A stretch of DNA of 64,000 nt from Bifidobacterium gallicum DSM 20093 = LMG 11596 (lineage in GTDB: Bacteria; Actinomycetota; Actinomycetes; Actinomycetales; Bifidobacteriaceae). Shown one piece after another: positions 9,326 through 60,278 of this stretch. Each line of letters opens with the position of its first letter. Position 1 is the first letter of the stretch. Location of the stretch: positions 1 to 64,000 of the forward strand of contig NZ_JGYW01000008.1 of assembly GCF_000741205.1 (NCBI RefSeq), in the 5' to 3' direction. The position numbers were made by a program, and so were the translations under genes. The notes beneath the pieces were generated by a model. It was not told the origin of the DNA. It worked only from the letters and a program-made list of their open reading frames with translations, and did no database searches.

Positions 9326-9398
9326 GCCTCCATCGTCTAGCGGTCTAGGACTACGCCCTCTCACGGCGCCAACACCGGTTCAAATCCGGTTGGAGGTA
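9326..9398 (+). tRNA. tRNA-Glu (anticodon CTC)
   Basis: A cloverleaf can be drawn. Acceptor arms are GCCTCCA and TGGAGGT with a G-U closing pair, as is normal for bacterial tRNA-Glu. The anticodon loop is CTCTCAC, giving CTC (reads GAG). The T arm is CCGG-TTCAAAT-CCGG. CCA is not encoded. Confidence 0.93.
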
Positions 9399-9449: not shown

Positions 9450-9524
9450 TGGGATGTGGTGTAATTGGCAACACAGCTGATTCTGGTTCAGCCATTCTTG
9501 GTTCGAGTCCAGGCATCCCAGCCA
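9450..9524 (+). tRNA. tRNA-Gln (anticodon CTG)
   Basis: Acceptor arms are TGGGATG and CATCCCA, the anticodon loop is TTCTGGT giving CTG (reads CAG), and the T loop is GTTCGAGTC. The U1-A72 pair fits tRNA-Gln. The terminal CCA is encoded at 9522-9524, unlike the neighbouring tRNA-Glu. Confidence 0.93.
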
Positions 9525-9557: not shown

Positions 9558-9697
9558 CCGCTGCCACCCGGCTTGCAAGGTTACCAACTCCAGCTGCCTG
9601 CCCCTACCACCCACGGGTCCATCCAGCGCAACCGCGGTGCAGACCATCAGGTTTCCCCACGTTTCTTTCCCTCCACACCCCCTATATATGCCGTGTT

Positions 9698-9792
9698 TTG
9701 TACCAGCGTGGTACAACCACAACACACCTGCGCTCCCCAACAACCCGATCCGTACCGTTTTCGTACCACCGTGGTACACAAACGATACGGTT
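9698..9792. repeat. Two GTACCANNNTGGTAC palindromes, relatives of the 53-bp arrays
   Basis: Cores are centred at 9707 and 9770. The second is flanked by matching outer arms (CCGTACCGTTT to the left, AAACGATACGG to the right), as in the last unit of the array at 24674. The gap between tRNA-Gln and the metallophosphoesterase gene (9558-9885) holds nothing else I can recognise. Confidence 0.75.
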
Positions 9793-24460: not shown

Positions 24461-24498
24461 CGGGACGTGCCGCCCCAACCATCAACTTCGGCGAAGGT

Positions 24499-24695
24499 GT
24501 ATCTTTCCTGACCAGCTTGGTTAGGAAAGATACGGTTCTGGGCTGGAAGTTGCGTCTTTCCGGACCGGCCTGGTCAGGAAAACCGCATTTTTGGGCTGGA
24601 AACTGCGTTTCTTCTAACCAGAGTGGTCAGGAAAACTGCAGTTTTGCTCAAACCCGTATCGTCGTTGTACCTGCGTGGTACAGAAAACGATACGG
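24499..24695 (+). repeat. 53-bp palindromic array, four units
   Basis: Cores TGACCANNNTGGTCA or variants are centred at 24516, 24569, 24622 and 24674 (steps 53, 53, 52). The last unit carries the GTACC/GGTAC version with outer arms CCGTATCG/CGATACGG. Lies between the MFS remnant and the convergent mscS gene. Confidence 0.9.
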
Positions 24696-24798
24696 ATTCG
24701 CCGGCATCAACCGTTGCGCTCGCCGATCGCCCCGTTCGAAGCCCATCGACTGACTGCTGACCCCACCTTGGGTGGGGTCGGTTCAGGTGTAAGGATTG

Positions 24799-34369: not shown

Positions 34370-34849
34370 AATCGTTCCCTTCTGACGATGGTGCACCTGG
34401 CTGGTTCCGTGTCTTGAATCTGCTGGGCGGATTCAAAGAGGTGGAGATGGACGATTCGTCACACCTGTTACGCCACGGACATCCGCGTCACGACGTCTGT
34501 GTTTACCCAAAACCCCTAATTCGAGGATTCATTGCTGAATCTGCACGCAATTGTACTGCATGCGGGGGTGAAGGGGGTAGGAAATTGGGGAATGTTGAAA
34601 TGGAGAAATGGTGAAGCGCGCGGGTGGGGTGGTTGGGGCATGCGGGCTGAGCGTGGTTGGGTGCCTGAGAAACCGTGTCGGGGGCGGTGATGAAGTGCGT
34701 GAAAACCGTTGGCGGATAACGGTTTTTGCGTTTATCCGAGCTGAATTGTACACTTGTGTAGTTGTGTGTTCGCCCATAACCGTGCTTCGTCTTGGTTATC
34801 GGTGTAATGCGCAGACTTGCAAGTCAATAGTAAATGTAGGGAGACCATA
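34370..34849 (+). other. Gene-free control region upstream of rpmB
   Basis: 480 bp. 34540-34700 is G-rich on the + strand, like the 30060-30490 tract. A stem CGGATAA/TTATCCG is at about 34713-34738. Nearer rpmB are short AT-rich segments (TGTACACTTGTGTAG) that may be its promoter, but no confident -10/-35 pair. Confidence 0.4.
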
Positions 34850-35044
34850 ATGTCTGCTCGTTGCGCAGTGTGTGGCAAGGGACCCAAGAGCGGTTTTTCT
34901 GTTACCCACTCTCATATCCGCAATAAGCGCCTCTTCCGCCCGAACCTGCAGCCGGTTCGCACCACGATCGAAGGTGAGAACGTCCGCATTCGCGTGTGCG
35001 CGAAATGCCTCAAGGCTGGCAAGGTCGCTCGCGTGAAGGCCTGA
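34850..35044 (+). CDS. rpmB: Ribosomal protein L28 (zinc-binding type)
   Basis: 64 residues. Four cysteines in two C-x-x-C pairs (CAVCG and CAKC) form a zinc site, the C+ form of L28. [17 protein letters not shown] is the family core. ATG 34850 follows AGGGAGA. Followed by its own terminator. In other bacteria C+ and C- L28 paralogues are used under zinc-rich or zinc-poor conditions; no Zur box was recognised here. Confidence 0.95.
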
Positions 35045-35057
35045 TTGCTAAGCGATA

Positions 35058-35090
35058 AACCCCGGAAGCGATTCGCCTCCGGGGTTCTTT
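35058..35090 (+). terminator. Terminator after rpmB
   Basis: AACCCCGGA...TCCGGGGTT stem with inner GCG/CGC, followed by CTTTC. Confidence 0.85.
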
Positions 35091-35471
35091 CGTATTCGCC
35101 TCCCTTTATCTAGGATGCGTCTCCTCTCTGCAATCCGCCTCCCTTCATCCGTAATCCGTCTCCCAATCCGGCCCAATCCGTTCCTCCAAGTCACCTCACA
35201 ATCTATTTCTTAGAGCTAGTCACATTCCCATAACCTGGCCCACTCCCATAAGCCACCTCCGCAATCCTCTCCTGCGCGCAACGCAACTCCATTTATCCGC
35301 AATCTTTCCCTCCCCACAGTTCAGTCCCGCAGTTCAGCCCGATAATCTGACTTTGCAGCTCATCCCCATAATCCGTACCTCCCATCCGATTCCCGTGATT
35401 TTCCTCAATCCAACCCCAACGTGCCCCACAATCCGCCCCCACGGTTAGCCCCTGGCAATCCGCTCCCCTCC
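35091..35471 (+). repeat. Pyrimidine-rich spacer with CAATCCG repeats
   Basis: About 380 bp with no gene. A degenerate unit like CAATCCGYYYCC recurs about eight times (for example near 35130, 35150, 35166, 35262, 35368, 35428 and 35455). The + strand is rich in C and T. It leads straight into the 53-bp array. Confidence 0.55.
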
Positions 35472-35898
35472 AAACTGCATCTTTCCTGACCAGGTTGGTC
35501 AGGAAAGTAGCGGTTTGGGGGCGAGAATTGCAGTTTTCCTGACCACGCTGGTCAGGAAAGTAGCGGTTTGGGGCTGGAAAGTGCAGTTATTCTTACCAGC
35601 CTGGTCAGGGGAGGTGCATTTTGGGCCGGGGAAGTGCAGTTTTGCTTACCAGCCTGGTAAGGGGAGATGCAGTTTCGGCCTAAAAGTTGCGTTTTTCTTG
35701 ACCGGCCTGGTCAGGAGGGATGCGGTTTCGGGTGGTGAAGTGCGTTTTTCCTGACCGGTCTGGTCAGGTGGGACACAGTTTTGGGTGGGAAAGTGCAGTT
35801 TTGCTGACCAGTTTGGTCAGCAGGGATGCAGTTTTGTCCCGGAAATTGCGTCTTCTCTGACCGCGCTGGTCAGGAGGGACGCGTTTTCGCTTGGAAAC
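35472..35898 (+). repeat. 53-bp palindromic array, eight units
   Basis: Palindrome centres are at 35494, 35547, 35600, 35653, 35706, 35759, 35812 and 35865: seven steps, each exactly 53 bp. Core is TGACCANNNTGGTCA, with variants TTACCA/TGGTAA and an extra G/C change on both flanks in the unit at 35812. Between cores is a second dyad around GATGCAGTTT and AAAGTTGCGT. It fills the gap between rpmB and recG. Confidence 0.95.
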
Positions 35899-36130
35899 TG
35901 TGGCTGGGCTGGCTGGGGTCCGACGCAACGGGATTGCAGTTTGGGTCCACTACTCGCCCTTCCAACGCAACGGACCCCGGCTCGTCCCTCCAACTCACCT
36001 CGTCAGCCGGCTCTCCGGTTCGCCGCTCTTGCCCGCGCTCCAACTTGCCCGCCCCCACCGGTCGGCTCCCGGCTGGACCCCATTCCTGGAGGGCGTGATT
36101 CAGCGGCGTCCAGTGGCTAAGATGGAGCGC

Positions 36131-38680
36131 ATGGTTGCCGTCACGCTGAACACCCCGCTCGCTTCGCTGCTCACGAACAAACGCCGCGTGAGTGCGCTCA
36201 AATCATTGGGTTTGACCACCGTCTCCGACGCGCTGACCTACTACCCGTTCCGCGTGACCGACCCCGTGCCCGTGCGCGCGCTCAAGGAAGCCCGTTTCGG
36301 CGAAAAAATGGCGTGCGTCGCGCAAGTGCGCTACTGCCGCACCGTGCCCATGGCTGCCCGCCGCGGCTCGCGCCTCGAAGTCATCGTCGACGACTCGCCG
36401 TCCGCCGCCAGCCGCCAGATGCCGCCCTCGCAGTGCTCGCTCGTATTTTTCTCACATCGCCCGTCCTACGTGGACTGGATGGCCTCGCGTTTGCAGCCCG
36501 GCCAACTCATCGTGCTCGCCGGCGACCCGAGTTCGTTCAACGACCGCCTGCAGTTCACGCATCCTGAGATTTTAACTATTTCCCCGCCAGCCACACTAGC
36601 ATCCTCAGCACTCACATACGACTGCGATTCTGTGCCCGAGGCGCTTGCTCGTGTATGCCGACCACGGCCCGTGTACCATGCTTCATCGCGCATTTCAACC
36701 GAGCACATTCACGAGACGATCCTCGGATTGTTGCGCCTGCTTGCAGGCCTTGACATGACGGTGCCCGATCCACAGCAAGGGCCGAGCAACGACGTATCAG
36801 TCGCGGCAACCACGTTGTTCGACGCTTCGGAGCACACGCGAACCGCGCTATTGCAAGCCATTCCCGACGTTCTGCCCGAACCCGTGCGCGTGCACAACCA
36901 TCTGATGCATCGCGCCCAGGCATTCAGCCAGATTCATGATCCGCAGACCGTGCATGCGTTCAAAGACGCGATTGGCACGATGCGGTTTGAAGAGGCGTTC
37001 ATTTGTCAAACAGCATTGCTGATGAGTCGCGCGGCGGCCAAACAGGGCAACGCGTGGAGCTGCACCGATCAGGTGTTGCGCGAGCAATTCATTGAGCAGC
37101 TGCCGTTCTCGCTGACCGCCGGCCAGCAACTCGTGATTGACGCGATCGCGCACGACATGGAACAGGACCATCCGATGCAACGCCTGCTGCAAGGCGAGGT
37201 GGGCTCAGGCAAGACTGTGGTGGCTGTGGCCGCAATGCTGCAAGCCGTGGGGTCAGGGCATCAGGCCGTGCTCGTGGCGCCAACACAGGTATTAGCCGAA
37301 CAGCATGCCGCCTCGATTGCAAAGATGGTCAAGGATTTGGACAGCCAAGACTTTTGTAGCCAATCCGGCTTGAAAAAACCGGACGGCCATGCTAGTGCCA
37401 AGGCCCAAGACGATGCATCGGACGCACAGGAAGCACGCAGCGATGATGCGGCTGACGGTGGCAGTGAGGGGGCGCGAGAGGAGCCGGCGACGGCGAAGTC
37501 GGTGTCACGAAAACAACAAATCAATATGAACCTGGGCACCCCCCAAGTGCCCGTGTATCTGCTGACGGGCGGCATGAAACTCGCCGAGCGCAGGCGTGTG
37601 CTGGCGGCGGCCGCGGGAGGCGAGCCGTGCATTGTGATCGCGACGCACGCCGCGTTTTCCAAAACGTTCCAAGCGCCGAACCTAGCGCTGGCCGTGGTGG
37701 ACGAGCAGCACCGGTTCGGCGTGGAACAGCGTGAAACGTTGCGCGCCAAAGGCGAGCGTGACCCGCACCTGCTCGTCATGACGGCCACGCCGATCCCGCG
37801 CACGGCCGCGATGACATGGTTCGGTGACCTTGACATTTCTGAACTGACGGAACTGCCGGGCGGACGCAAACCAATCCGCACGTTCATTGTTCAGGAAGCG
37901 GACGCGACGCGCATGGGGTCGATGTTTGCGTTGATTCGCCAGCGTATTGATGCGGGGGAGCGCGCGTATGTGATTTGCCCGCGCATTGATGCCGATGAAG
38001 AGCAGCCGGACCAGGGTGAGGGCGACGGGCCGCAACTGTTTGATGATGGCGAGGAGTCGACACCCAAACCGCCGTTGCATTCTGTGGAGGAGATGTTCAC
38101 ACGGCTGCAGCATTTGCCGCAGTTTGCTGGCGTTGCGTTTGCGCGGTTGACAGGACGAGACGATGATGCTACCAAGAACGCCGTGATGGCCGATTTTTCG
38201 TCGGGACGCACGCCGGTGCTCGTGGCGACGACCGTGGTCGAAGTGGGCGTGGATGTGCCGCAAGCCAGTTGCATTGTGATTTTTGATGCGGACCGCTATG
38301 GGCTCTCGCAGTTGCACCAGCTGCGCGGGCGTGTGGGCCGAGGAGGCACGAATTCGTGGGCATTCCTGATTTCGCGCGCTGAGGACGGCACGGTGGCCCA
38401 GGAGCGGTTGATGGCGATTGAAGGCACGTTGGACGGCGCGCAGATCGCGCAGAAAGACTTGGAATTGCGCGGCGCAGGTGACGTGCTGGGCGATGCGCAG
38501 TCGGGTGGCAAGAGCTCGCTCAAACTGTTGCGCGTCGTCAAGGATGCCGGTCTGATTGCGCAAGCGCGTGACGAAAGCGCCGAATTGTTGGAAGCGGATC
38601 ACGATTTGCACCAATGGCCGCAGCTGGCCGGTGCCGTGCTCGACTTCACGCGAGGCAATGAAGCGTTCTTGCATAGTTGA
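36131..38680 (+). CDS. recG: ATP-dependent DNA helicase RecG
   Basis: 849 residues from ATG 36131, or 36122. Restores stalled replication forks and processes Holliday junctions. Wedge domain lies in the first 300 residues; Walker A is GEVGSGKT near 355, the DEAD-box variant is DEQHRFGVEQ near 525, TATPIPRT near 555, and motif VI is QLRGRVGRG near 730. A charged low-complexity insert (Asp/Ala/Glu/Ser, residues 410-472) lies between helicase motifs Ia and Ib. rsmD lies 216 bp downstream. Confidence 0.95.
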   Translation: MVAVTLNTPLASLLTNKRRVSALKSLGLTTVSDALTYYPFRVTDPVPVRALKEARFGEKMACVAQVRYCRTVPMAARRGSRLEVIVDDSPSAASRQMPPSQCSLVFFSHRPSYVDWMASRLQPGQLIVLAGDPSSFNDRLQFTHPEILTISPPATLASSALTYDCDSVPEALARVCRPRPVYHASSRISTEHIHETILGLLRLLAGLDMTVPDPQQGPSNDVSVAATTLFDASEHTRTALLQAIPDVLPEPVRVHNHLMHRAQAFSQIHDPQTVHAFKDAIGTMRFEEAFICQTALLMSRAAAKQGNAWSCTDQVLREQFIEQLPFSLTAGQQLVIDAIAHDMEQDHPMQRLLQGEVGSGKTVVAVAAMLQAVGSGHQAVLVAPTQVLAEQHAASIAKMVKDLDSQDFCSQSGLKKPDGHASAKAQDDASDAQEARSDDAADGGSEGAREEPATAKSVSRKQQINMNLGTPQVPVYLLTGGMKLAERRRVLAAAAGGEPCIVIATHAAFSKTFQAPNLALAVVDEQHRFGVEQRETLRAKGERDPHLLVMTATPIPRTAAMTWFGDLDISELTELPGGRKPIRTFIVQEADATRMGSMFALIRQRIDAGERAYVICPRIDADEEQPDQGEGDGPQLFDDGEESTPKPPLHSVEEMFTRLQHLPQFAGVAFARLTGRDDDATKNAVMADFSSGRTPVLVATTVVEVGVDVPQASCIVIFDADRYGLSQLHQLRGRVGRGGTNSWAFLISRAEDGTVAQERLMAIEGTLDGAQIAQKDLELRGAGDVLGDAQSGGKSSLKLLRVVKDAGLIAQARDESAELLEADHDLHQWPQLAGAVLDFTRGNEAFLHS

Positions 38681-46277: not shown

Positions 46278-46332
46278 CCATCTGCCCCTCTCCTTGCTGC
46301 GGCTACTGCGGAGGCGCGAATCGCCGGAAAAC

Positions 46333-46690
46333 GCATCTTTTCGTACCAGCCCGGTCAGGAGGGATACATTTATGGCCTCGAAACTGCCATTCCCCTGACC
46401 GGCCTGGTAAGCGGAGATACATTTATGGCCTCGAAACTGCGGTTTCCCTGACCAGCCGGGTCAGGGGAGATGCAGTTAGGGCACGGAAACTGCAGTTTTC
46501 CTGACCGGCCTGGTCAGTGGGGATGCAGTTATGCCGTGAAATGCGGTGGTTCTGACCAGGCTGGTACGGAGAGATGTACTTATGGCCGCGAAAGTGCAGT
46601 TTACCTGACCAACTTGGTCAGGGGAGATGCAGTTAGGATCGCAAAAGCGCACATCCCCTGACCAGCCCGGTCAGGAAAACTACATTTATG
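46333..46690 (+). repeat. 53-bp palindromic array, seven units
   Basis: Centres are at 46350, 46403, 46456, 46509, 46560, 46613 and 46666 (steps 53, 53, 53, 51, 53, 53). Spacers read like GGAGATGCAGTTATGGCCTC and AAACTGCAGTTTCC. It fills the gap between trmD and the ABC-F gene. Confidence 0.95.
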
Positions 46691-52542: not shown

Positions 52543-53298
52543 GGTTCCCCCTGGGGTGCTGACCGTGCGGCTGCTGCTGTGCTCTATTCCAGCCTAACCG
52601 TTTCCGTCCGGCAGTTTTGCTCAAGGGAAAGGGCGCGTCGCCGCGCTCGCGGTGGTGGGGGAGAAAGGGAGGAGGAGAAAAGAGAGGGGAGGAAGGAGAG
52701 GGGGTGCCAAGGAGGCGAGAGAAAGGGAAAAGAAAGGGAAAAGAGAAGAAGAGGCGGAGGCCAGATGGTTGACGCGAGGGGGAGGAAAAGGAAAAGAGAG
52801 GGACGGCAGCGTTTGGGGGGAGGCGCTAAACGCGCGCGGAGCGGACTCCATGGTTGCGGGTAAGGCACGCTCAGGTCGAGAAGGCGCTAAACGCGCGCGG
52901 AGCGGACACAAGTCCCGCCACTGCAAGCAGTGGAAGGCAGACCGTGGTGAAACGCGAACCAAACAGCCATGAGCGTGGCGCAAGGCTTGGAGCTGGAAGC
53001 CGCAAGGCTCCCATGTCAACTAGAACAAACTAGCTGACAACGGAAGGTTGGAGAAGGAAAAAGGAAGGGGATGGCGGAACGGCTTCCCCCAAAGGCCCCG
53101 CAACGGCAACGCAAGAGGAACACAGCCCGCGAGCGCAGCGACCGCAACCGCACTTCGGGTAGGGCGGCTTGGCGCCAGGAAACGCGCCCACCCACTTTCA
53201 CCCCACTCGCTTGCATCTGTTCCTCTCTTACCCCACTGTCACCCGCGTTGGAAAATGCTTCCGGTTTTTCTCCGAGTGCGGCTAAACTTGTGGGCATT
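52543..53298 (+). other. Gene-free region: purine tract and direct repeat before ffh
   Basis: About 755 bp. From about 52653 to 52815 the + strand is almost all purine (GGGAGGAGGAGAAAAGAGAG style). A perfect 26-bp direct repeat beginning AGGCGCTAAACGCGCGCGG lies at 52821-52846 and 52882-52907. Further on are ordinary GC-rich segments. The frame of ffh stays open back to 53071 but without similarity. TAAACT at 53283-53288 lies 10 bp before the ffh ATG. Confidence 0.6.
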
Positions 53299-59465: not shown

Positions 59466-59671
59466 CTCGACGGGGGTACTGGCCATTGTTCGCATGCTGA
59501 CCGCCCCCATGGACACCCCCAAATCCGCGGCTGCCGTCCCGTAGGCCACCCCACAACTTAAGCCCCATCCCCACAACTGGCGCCCCCATCACTGGCGCCA
59601 GTCCCATAACCAGGCTCACCCCACAGGTTCATCACTCCACCCCAGTAAGCCAATACCGCATCCCCGCCCCA

Positions 59672-60244
59672 AACCGCGTCTCTCCTGACCACGCTGGTCA
59701 GGAGGTTTACCGTTTGGAGCCCGTAACTGCGTCTTTCCTGACCAGTCTGGTAAGAGGTTTTACCGTTCTAAGTACCAAACTGCATCTTCCCTGACCACGC
59801 TGGTCAGGAAGTTTACCTTTTGGAGTCCGTAACTGCGTCTTTGCGTACCAGCCTGGTCAAGAGGTTTACCGTTTCCGCTCCGCAACTGCGTCTTCTCTTA
59901 CCACGCTGGTCAGGGGGTTTACCGCAAGCCGGATCCAATCGCAGGCTCGTTGCTACGCCTGTTGGCGTCCTCCCCGCACTTCAGCCCCAAACTGCATCTT
60001 TTCTGACCAGTCTGGTCAGGAGGTTTACCGTTCCCAAACCGAAACTGCATCTTCTCTTACCACGCTGGTCAGGGGGTTTACCGTTTGGAGCCCAGAACTG
60101 CATCCTTCCTGACCAGCCTGGTCAGAGGGTTTACCGCTTGAGGCCCGTAACTGCGTCTTTGCGTACCAGCCTGGTCAAGAGGTTTACCGTTTCCGCTCCG
60201 CAACTGCGTCTCTCCTTACCGGCTTGGTAAGAAAAGACGCAGTT
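59672..60244 (+). repeat. 53-bp palindromic array, ten units plus one decayed
   Basis: Centres at 59693, 59746, 59799, 59852, 59905, 60011, 60064, 60117, 60170 and 60223. All steps are 53 bp except one of 106 bp (2 x 53), where the expected core at 59958 is unrecognisable. Spacers here are of the GGTTTACCGTTTGGAGCCCG type. The segment around 59852-59905 is repeated at 60170-60223, six periods later. It fills the gap between ilvB and rnc. Confidence 0.95.
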
Positions 60245-60278
60245 TGCTGTGGATCTTCGGCACAGCCGCAGCCGTCCG

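What the first reader, a model, noticed from the sequence alone, without database searches (positions are those of the whole stretch)
35472..35898. Eight-unit palindromic array at exactly 53-bp pitch between rpmB and recG
Seen directly: eight cores of type TGACCANNNTGGTCA have centres exactly 53 bp apart (35494 to 35865, seven equal steps). 53 is not a multiple of 3, so the frame rotates and it is not coding. Units are similar but not identical, so spacing is better kept than sequence. 53 bp is about five helical turns, which would put every palindrome on the same DNA face. Inference: binding platform for a dimeric protein that cooperates along the helix, or a chromosome-organising element.
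Basis: partly seen in the sequence, partly recalled or inferred. Interest (0 to 1): 0.9.

Follow-up and report, generated by a model that had tools for sequence, protein, structure and literature searches.

The report
Chromosome-wide phased palindrome arrays
One bacterial genome carries roughly 300 mirror-image DNA sites in about 46 clusters, mostly 53 letters apart, which looks like a landing platform for an unknown protein that lines up along one face of the DNA, although the protein has not been found.

Summary
Confirmed: eight palindromes, centres 35494-35865, seven steps of exactly 53 bp. It is one of 46 clusters found (about 305 units) in this 2.0-Mb genome. Of 194 A-A steps under 60 bp, 167 are exactly 53 though neighbours differ at 27% of positions. 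A second family (B, GTACC-N5-GGTAC) keeps the pitch with arms placed differently; of 49 B-B steps 38 are 51-53 and 11 are 62-63, one helical turn more. The five A/B junctions seen are in phase. B spreads as a block. Core changes on the two sides are independent, which suits half-sites, not hairpins. None of 111 congeners exceeds chance. One of 46 clusters lies on contig C5, 22% of the genome, which maps opposite ParB.

Best explanation: a mobile, lineage-specific platform for a dimeric DNA-binding protein stacking on one DNA face, probably in chromosome organisation. Phasing and distribution are shown; protein, binding and function are inferred, no candidate found. It fails tests for ParB centromeres and REP/BIME.

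The parts
35472..35887 (+). A-type array of the finding, 8 units, pitch 53 exactly
24494..24644 (+). A-type array, 3 units (24516, 24569, 24622), pitch 53
24652..24696 (.). single B-type palindrome centred 24674, 52 bp after the last A unit
46328..46688 (+). A-type array, 7 units, steps 53 53 53 51 53 53
59671..60245 (+). A-type array, 10 recognised units, steps 53 except one of 106
9685..9792 (.). two B-type palindromes (9707, 9770), step 63, after two tRNA genes (9326-9398, 9450-9521)
34817..35044 (+).

Best explanation
The array is one copy of a lineage-specific, mobile family of intergenic protein-binding platforms. Each 53-bp unit is a dyad of two ~20-bp half-sites that would hold one dimer (or two) of a sequence-specific DNA-binding protein. 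The five-turn pitch puts successive complexes on the same DNA face, so that they can touch and bind cooperatively. Two sequence families (A, open-ended tandem arrays; B, compact modules, typically of five palindromes) keep the same register. They are spread over the origin-side and middle parts of the chromosome and are almost missing from the contig that maps opposite ParB. The most likely role is chromosome-scale (nucleoid organisation, or timing of division as with Noc and SlmA sites) rather than control of particular genes. Shown: arrays, pitch, phase, two families, spread of B as a block, distribution by contig. Inferred: the protein, cooperative binding, function.
For: Pitch: 167 of 194 A-A steps under 60 bp are exactly 53 and 26 of the other 27 lie within 2 bp, while adjacent units differ at 26.6% of positions (about 17 substitutions per unit after correction, the 42 clusters). 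Helical turn: of 49 B-B steps (44, 5) 38 are 51-53, 11 are 62-63, none between. Over 263 steps listed, 238 are 51-54, 12 are 61.5-63, 12 are near two or three pitches and 1 is 56; of six periods tried, 10.5 bp gives the 25 steps outside 51-55 their best phase (R 0.84). Same pitch although B arms lie about 1 bp further out. The five A/B junctions seen measure 52, 52, 52, 53 and about 62. Core positions 6-7 vary independently on the two sides (940 of 2000 permutations as high), and on 40 units covariation equals the shuffles. C5 holds 1 of 46 clusters with 21.7% of the genome (P 1.8e-4; all eight large contigs, chi-square P 5.6e-5), and its landmarks lie opposite ParB in G004, G015 and G024. Unit orientation agrees with flanking GC skew in 26 of 31 A clusters. 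Named flanking genes are mixed housekeeping genes (17 of 40 proteins had no family).
Against: No binding protein was identified, and the genome shows one ParB ORF. Tandem duplication keeps a period by itself; B copies share ancestry, so the 62-63 steps may be one or a few events. The phase figure leans on steps that are multiples of the pitch, and one interval (C1:29195-29351) was entered both whole and split. I have no internal neutral indel rate; that indels are scarce against 27% substitutions rests on recalled ratios. C5 was singled out after the counts were seen; the bias was judged by contig and ParB as a marker of the origin is recalled. It could come from replication dosage or insertion preference. 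A half-sites without partner exceed the control (10 against 4; five score above the control's best), though four of those five lie within about 110 bp of an array. Arms 8-22 show a small excess of self-complementarity (A 0.546 against 0.538, 22/2000; B 0.541 against 0.511, 37/2000), and a few units have divergent arms that are perfectly complementary (C4:332458, C3:52100, C2:25109), which half-site selection alone does not explain.
Confidence: 0.5

Rival explanations
1. A selfish or neutral interspersed repeat family of the BOX kind: non-autonomous modules copied by a transposase or recombinase, tandem units multiplied by slippage or unequal exchange. The pitch is a relic of duplication, or a need of the mobilising complex, and the arrays do nothing for the host.
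For: Restricted to this genome among 112 of the genus; no gene theme. The closest B copies are 84-93% identical over 197-262 bp with the match ending at the element. Recognised A units per cluster run from 3 to 22. The L28-RecG gap is about 1 kb longer than in 7 congeners.
Against: No target-site duplication seen by eye. No autonomous relative found: the three Y1 transposase loci have no unit within about 1.5 kb; other transposase families were not searched genome-wide. Two families at one pitch and one-turn steps are not expected of a relic, and near-absence from C5 needs a further assumption.
Confidence: 0.33
2. RNA or single-strand hairpins: each unit is a stem-loop acting in transcripts (terminator, stabiliser, processing signal).
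For: Units are near palindromes; with G-U pairs 84.1% of cells pair in the oriented strand, far above the slid controls of 41-54% (expected of any palindrome). A few units have perfectly complementary divergent arms.
Against: Paired cells (84.1 against 84.5%) and covariation (0.207 against 0.211) do not exceed the shuffles; core changes do not pair up. No terminator-like site in 35000-36200 (0 found, 1.9 expected in shuffles) and no Rfam match at the array. Unit orientation agrees with the flanking genes in 7 of 13 co-directional A clusters (my count, rpmB taken as left gene at 35 kb). Exact pitch and one-turn steps have no evident use in RNA.
Confidence: 0.08
3. Operator arrays of an ordinary transcription regulator that controls the neighbouring genes.
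For: Palindromic half-sites of a size bound by dimeric helix-turn-helix proteins (inference).
Against: Named neighbours are unrelated housekeeping genes. By my rough ORF calls the 42 clusters lie between convergent (13), divergent (10) and co-directional (16) ORFs, 3 undetermined. About 305 sites is many for one regulon.
Confidence: 0.06

Closest known systems
sopC (parS of the F plasmid), ParABS type Ia centromere
   Same: Tandem units of fixed length (twelve of 43 bp), each with a 16-bp inverted repeat bound by a ParB dimer (PMC9178275, passages read).
   Different: One plasmid locus beside sopA and sopB; here 46 chromosomal clusters, 53 bp, two sequence families, and one ParB ORF in the genome, about 20 kb from the nearest cluster found.
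Noc and SlmA binding sites
   Same: Palindromic sites scattered on the chromosome and not uniformly distributed, noticeably under-represented in part of it; arrays placed in the terminus delay division (PMC4726725, passages read; that the gap is the terminus is partly recalled).
   Different: About 70 and 24-52 sites, 14-bp palindrome for Noc; here long phased arrays, about 305 units, other sequences, protein unknown.
BOX elements of Streptococcus pneumoniae
   Same: Interspersed modular repeats with tandem internal boxB modules of varying number (PMC3049150, passages read).
   Different: No boxA/boxC-like end modules recognised; palindromic units in helical phase.
REP/BIME elements with RAYT transposases
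   Same: Abundant short palindromes, species-specific, regularly spaced in clusters (PMC2817692, start of abstract, passages).
   Different: REPs there keep complementary mutations and flank a RAYT gene; neither was found here.

Membership tests
sopC-type ParB centromere | tandem fixed-length units with a palindrome | tested here: met
sopC-type ParB centromere | cognate ParB/SopB gene beside the array | tested here: not met
   the two PF02195 matches of the genome are pieces of one ORF at C1:182 kb; the nearest cluster found starts at C1:202.4 kb
REP/BIME | RAYT (Y1 transposase) flanked by the repeats | tested here: not met
   3 Y1_Tnp loci in the genome; no unit in the ~3.4 kb held for each
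REP/BIME | stem kept by complementary mutations | tested here: not met
   core changes independent, no covariation above shuffles on 40 units; arms show only a small excess
REP/BIME | GTAG or CGTC tag at one end | not tested
   no fixed tag seen by eye in the consensus; not counted
BOX element | distinct end modules (boxA, boxC) round the tandem modules | tested here: inconclusive
   matches between the closest B copies end at the palindromes; some A-array matches run 20-56 bp past the last recognised unit, where degenerate half-sites lie
MITE | target-site duplication | tested here: inconclusive
   none seen by eye at the ends of 15 B elements and fragments; not counted by program
Noc/SlmA-type site set | chromosome-wide sites depleted near the terminus | tested here: met
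   C5 1 of 46 clusters; C5 maps opposite ParB in three congeners; judged by contig only
Noc/SlmA-type site set | bound by a division inhibitor | not testable with these tools
   needs pull-down or ChIP
CRISPR array | near-identical repeats with long unique spacers | tested here: not met
   adjacent units differ at 26.6% of positions and the stretch between dyads is about 10 bp

The most novel reading that the evidence does not exclude
A previously undescribed chromosome-organising system: an unknown dimeric protein forms short straight filaments on about 46 helically phased palindrome arrays that avoid the terminus, giving this species its own Noc/SlmA-like or macrodomain-like address code, spread by mobile five-palindrome modules and written in two interchangeable half-site dialects at one pitch.
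Probability: 0.25. Interest if true: 0.93.

Novelty: new variant of a known kind. Interest (0 to 1): 0.78.

Why it matters
If the platform reading is right, one lineage evolved several hundred phased binding sites (about 305 units x 53 bp, some 0.8% of the genome) on a scale and regularity unlike sopC, Noc, SlmA, BOX or BIME as described in the papers cited. It makes testable how a chromosome-wide address code can arise through mobile elements, and the natural steps of 53 and 63 bp offer a ready test of helical phasing in cells. If it is only a selfish repeat, it is still an unusual one whose pitch is kept better than its sequence.

Tried and rejected
Rfam: no family at the array. BLAST of the array in 39 genomes: only the own genome. 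Plasmid and phage records: no blastn match. IMG/VR: 0 for both exact patterns. GTDB r220 contigs: 0 for A; for B one isolated pair in a Candidimonas record, near chance; the window's own genome may be hidden in those scans. Sequence model R1 (52 candidates scored per genome, so an undercount): 95 matches in the own genome, 3 weak partial ones elsewhere (E 0.005-0.008), taken as chance. Third family of near-perfect dyads at such pitches: none in 444,691 bases. An IS with matching ends: not seen in the fetched stretches; one A half-site, C1:3435, stands alone without explanation. Local neutral indel rate from the C4/C3 duplication: failed, it is an rRNA operon. Periodicity in 35045-35470: none clear. 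Papers: titles and abstract starts (20 of 29 listed; 5; 12 of 22; 8 of 9; 5 of 6; 8) showed none on such arrays in Bifidobacterium; PMC2788695 was listed and not opened; PMC3733652 passages do not name the genus. Subscription journals are not covered. Not looked for: other transposase or DNA-binding families genome-wide.

Full report
Observation. The eight cores at 35494-35865 stand exactly 53 bp apart. Tandem Repeats Finder reports the same 53-bp period at 24535-24646, 35482-35887, 46345-46675 and 59672-60220. The window has 22 core pairs at 53 bp against a mean of 0.03 in 30 Markov-1 sequences.

Anatomy. Each A unit is a dyad of about 43 bp: inner TGACC-N5-GGTCA, T-rich blocks about 10-12 and AA..TG about 17-21 from the centre, then roughly 10 bp to the next dyad. 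Half-site consensus: AAACTGCATCTTTCCTGACC for A, ATATGTATCGTGTTTGTACC for B; by eye both hold TGYATC and ACC, with one base more between them in B.

Census. Searches of the own genome, then a matrix scan of fetched stretches, gave 42 clusters with 292 units, 235 A and 57 B, and 4 more clusters with 13 units, one of them a single site. Three single B sites (window 24674, C1:29248, C1:118481) stand beside or inside A arrays and are outside these numbers. The scan covered 444,691 bases; clusters too weak for the genome searches may be missing.

Pitch. Of 194 A-A steps under 60 bp, 167 are 53, 11 are 52, 11 are 54, 4 are 51 and 1 is 56; adjacent units differ at 26.6% of positions. Ten longer A-A steps are 103, 104, 106, 156 or 157, near two or three pitches. 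Over the 263 steps listed, 25 lie outside 51-55; their phase is best at 10.5 bp (R 0.84; 0.46 at 10.0, 0.70 at 10.2, 0.83 at 10.4, 0.82 at 10.6, 0.44 at 11.0). Many of these are multiples of the pitch, and one interval is entered twice, so this is supporting evidence only.

Family B. The core is GTACC-N5-GGTAC: 31 places at 53 bp in the own genome, one each in 3 of 111 congeners at 3 mismatches, no more than in the reversed control. Most full elements have five palindromes with steps [52, 62 or 63]-53-53-[52, 62 or 63] and a recognisable central unit; in the alignment of 11, three have four palindromes and one has six. Of 49 B-B steps 38 are 51-53 and 11 are 62-63. Pairs c42/x11 (88.6% over 262 bp), c41/x11 (92.9% over 197), c41/c42 (90.6% over 213) and c10/c17 (84.3% over 248) match up to the element edge and no further: B moves as a block. 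A and B sites abut at 52 (window 24622-24674; C3:20212-20264; C4:187161-187213), 53 (C1:29195-29248) and about 62 (C1:118420-118481, core with 4 instead of 5 central bases); these are the five junctions I saw.

Not hairpins. Within arrays, changes at core positions 6-7 are independent on the two sides (0.734 against 0.732, 940 of 2000). On 40 A units paired cells are 84.1% against 84.5% shuffled. Arms 8-22 show a slight excess of self-complementarity (22 and 37 of 2000), and the units at C4:332458, C3:52100 and C2:25109 have divergent but perfectly complementary arms. These are unexplained; palindrome-templated repair is one possibility.

Distribution. Clusters per contig: C1 10, C2 4, C3 10, C4 8, C5 1, C7 1, C8 6, C9 4, C11 1, C12 1, C6 and C10 none found (chi-square over eight contigs P 5.6e-5). 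The ParB ORF lies on C1. Landmark fragments put C5 at 0.88-1.23 Mb in G015 (2.1 Mb, ParB 2.09; 5 of 7 landmarks, one of them 44% identical with a stop), 1.04-1.41 in G004 (2.3 Mb, ParB 0.21; 5 of 7) and 0.86-1.44 in G024 (2.6 Mb, ParB 2.63; 7 of 7, two of them apart from the rest), opposite ParB in each. In G057, in four contigs, ParB and C5 fall on different contigs, so it says nothing on this. Other landmarks were weak or conflicting in part (for example C9, C11), so only the C5 statement is firm. Unit orientation agrees with flanking GC skew in 26 of 31 A clusters (P 1.9e-4, Spearman 0.55; clusters sharing a stretch are not independent, and the disagreeing five are on C1, C2, C5, C7 and C8). 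Strand-biased mutation toward G and T would give this (inference).

Context. The L28-RecG gap is about 1,090 bp here and about 70-130 bp in the 7 of 18 congeners whose loci held both by tblastn. Of 40 flanking proteins scanned, 17 had no NCBIfam match at 1e-8; the named ones include purA, a PknB-type kinase, purL, rplQ, nusG, rplK, an aroF-type synthase, pdxT, chorismate mutase and a pilin above their cut-offs, and ppc-, acpS- and metA-like proteins below theirs. Two A arrays follow 5S rRNA genes. That clusters are intergenic rests on my rough ORF calls.

Taxonomic range. Near pattern (3 of 20 mismatches): 162 places in the own genome; 15 of the 111 other genomes had 16 places in all, at 2 or 3 mismatches, against 8 places of the reversed control in 7 of them. 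Variable pitch 38-68, exact cores: 54 places in the own genome, 0 in the 111 others, 0 in the control.

Interpretation. What is shown is a phased palindrome family, with B mobile, that is nearly missing from the contig opposite ParB. That it is a protein platform is inferred from independent half-sites, kept pitch and one-turn steps. That it organises the chromosome is inferred from distribution and by analogy with Noc and SlmA sites (PMC4726725, passages) and sopC (PMC9178275, passages). It is not filed as a member of any of these.

Noticed in passing
window 52949-53017 (+): Rfam Transposase-2 RNA (RF03015) match, 62.5 bits.
   Followed up: no
window 35045-35470: Pyrimidine-rich intergenic stretch with many ATCCG words before the array; no clear period.
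   Followed up: partly
L064:1186-2100 (C4) and L110 (C3:60039-60303): A arrays directly downstream of 5S rRNA in two rRNA operons, sharing an end unit but with 14 and 5 recognised units.
   Followed up: partly
L068, C4:332458: Perfectly complementary palindrome (about 43 bp) with unrelated arms exactly 53 bp after the last A unit.
   Followed up: partly
L092, C3:142249-142481: B five-palindrome element between nusG and rplK, genes usually close together ('usually' is recalled).
   Followed up: no
C1:3435 (L050): A-type half-site (score 19.2) standing alone about 3 kb from the nearest array.
   Followed up: no
C5:408573, C3:31835, C3:138907: Three Y1 transposase loci of the IS200/IS605 kind, one beside a TnpB-like gene by eye.
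   Followed up: partly
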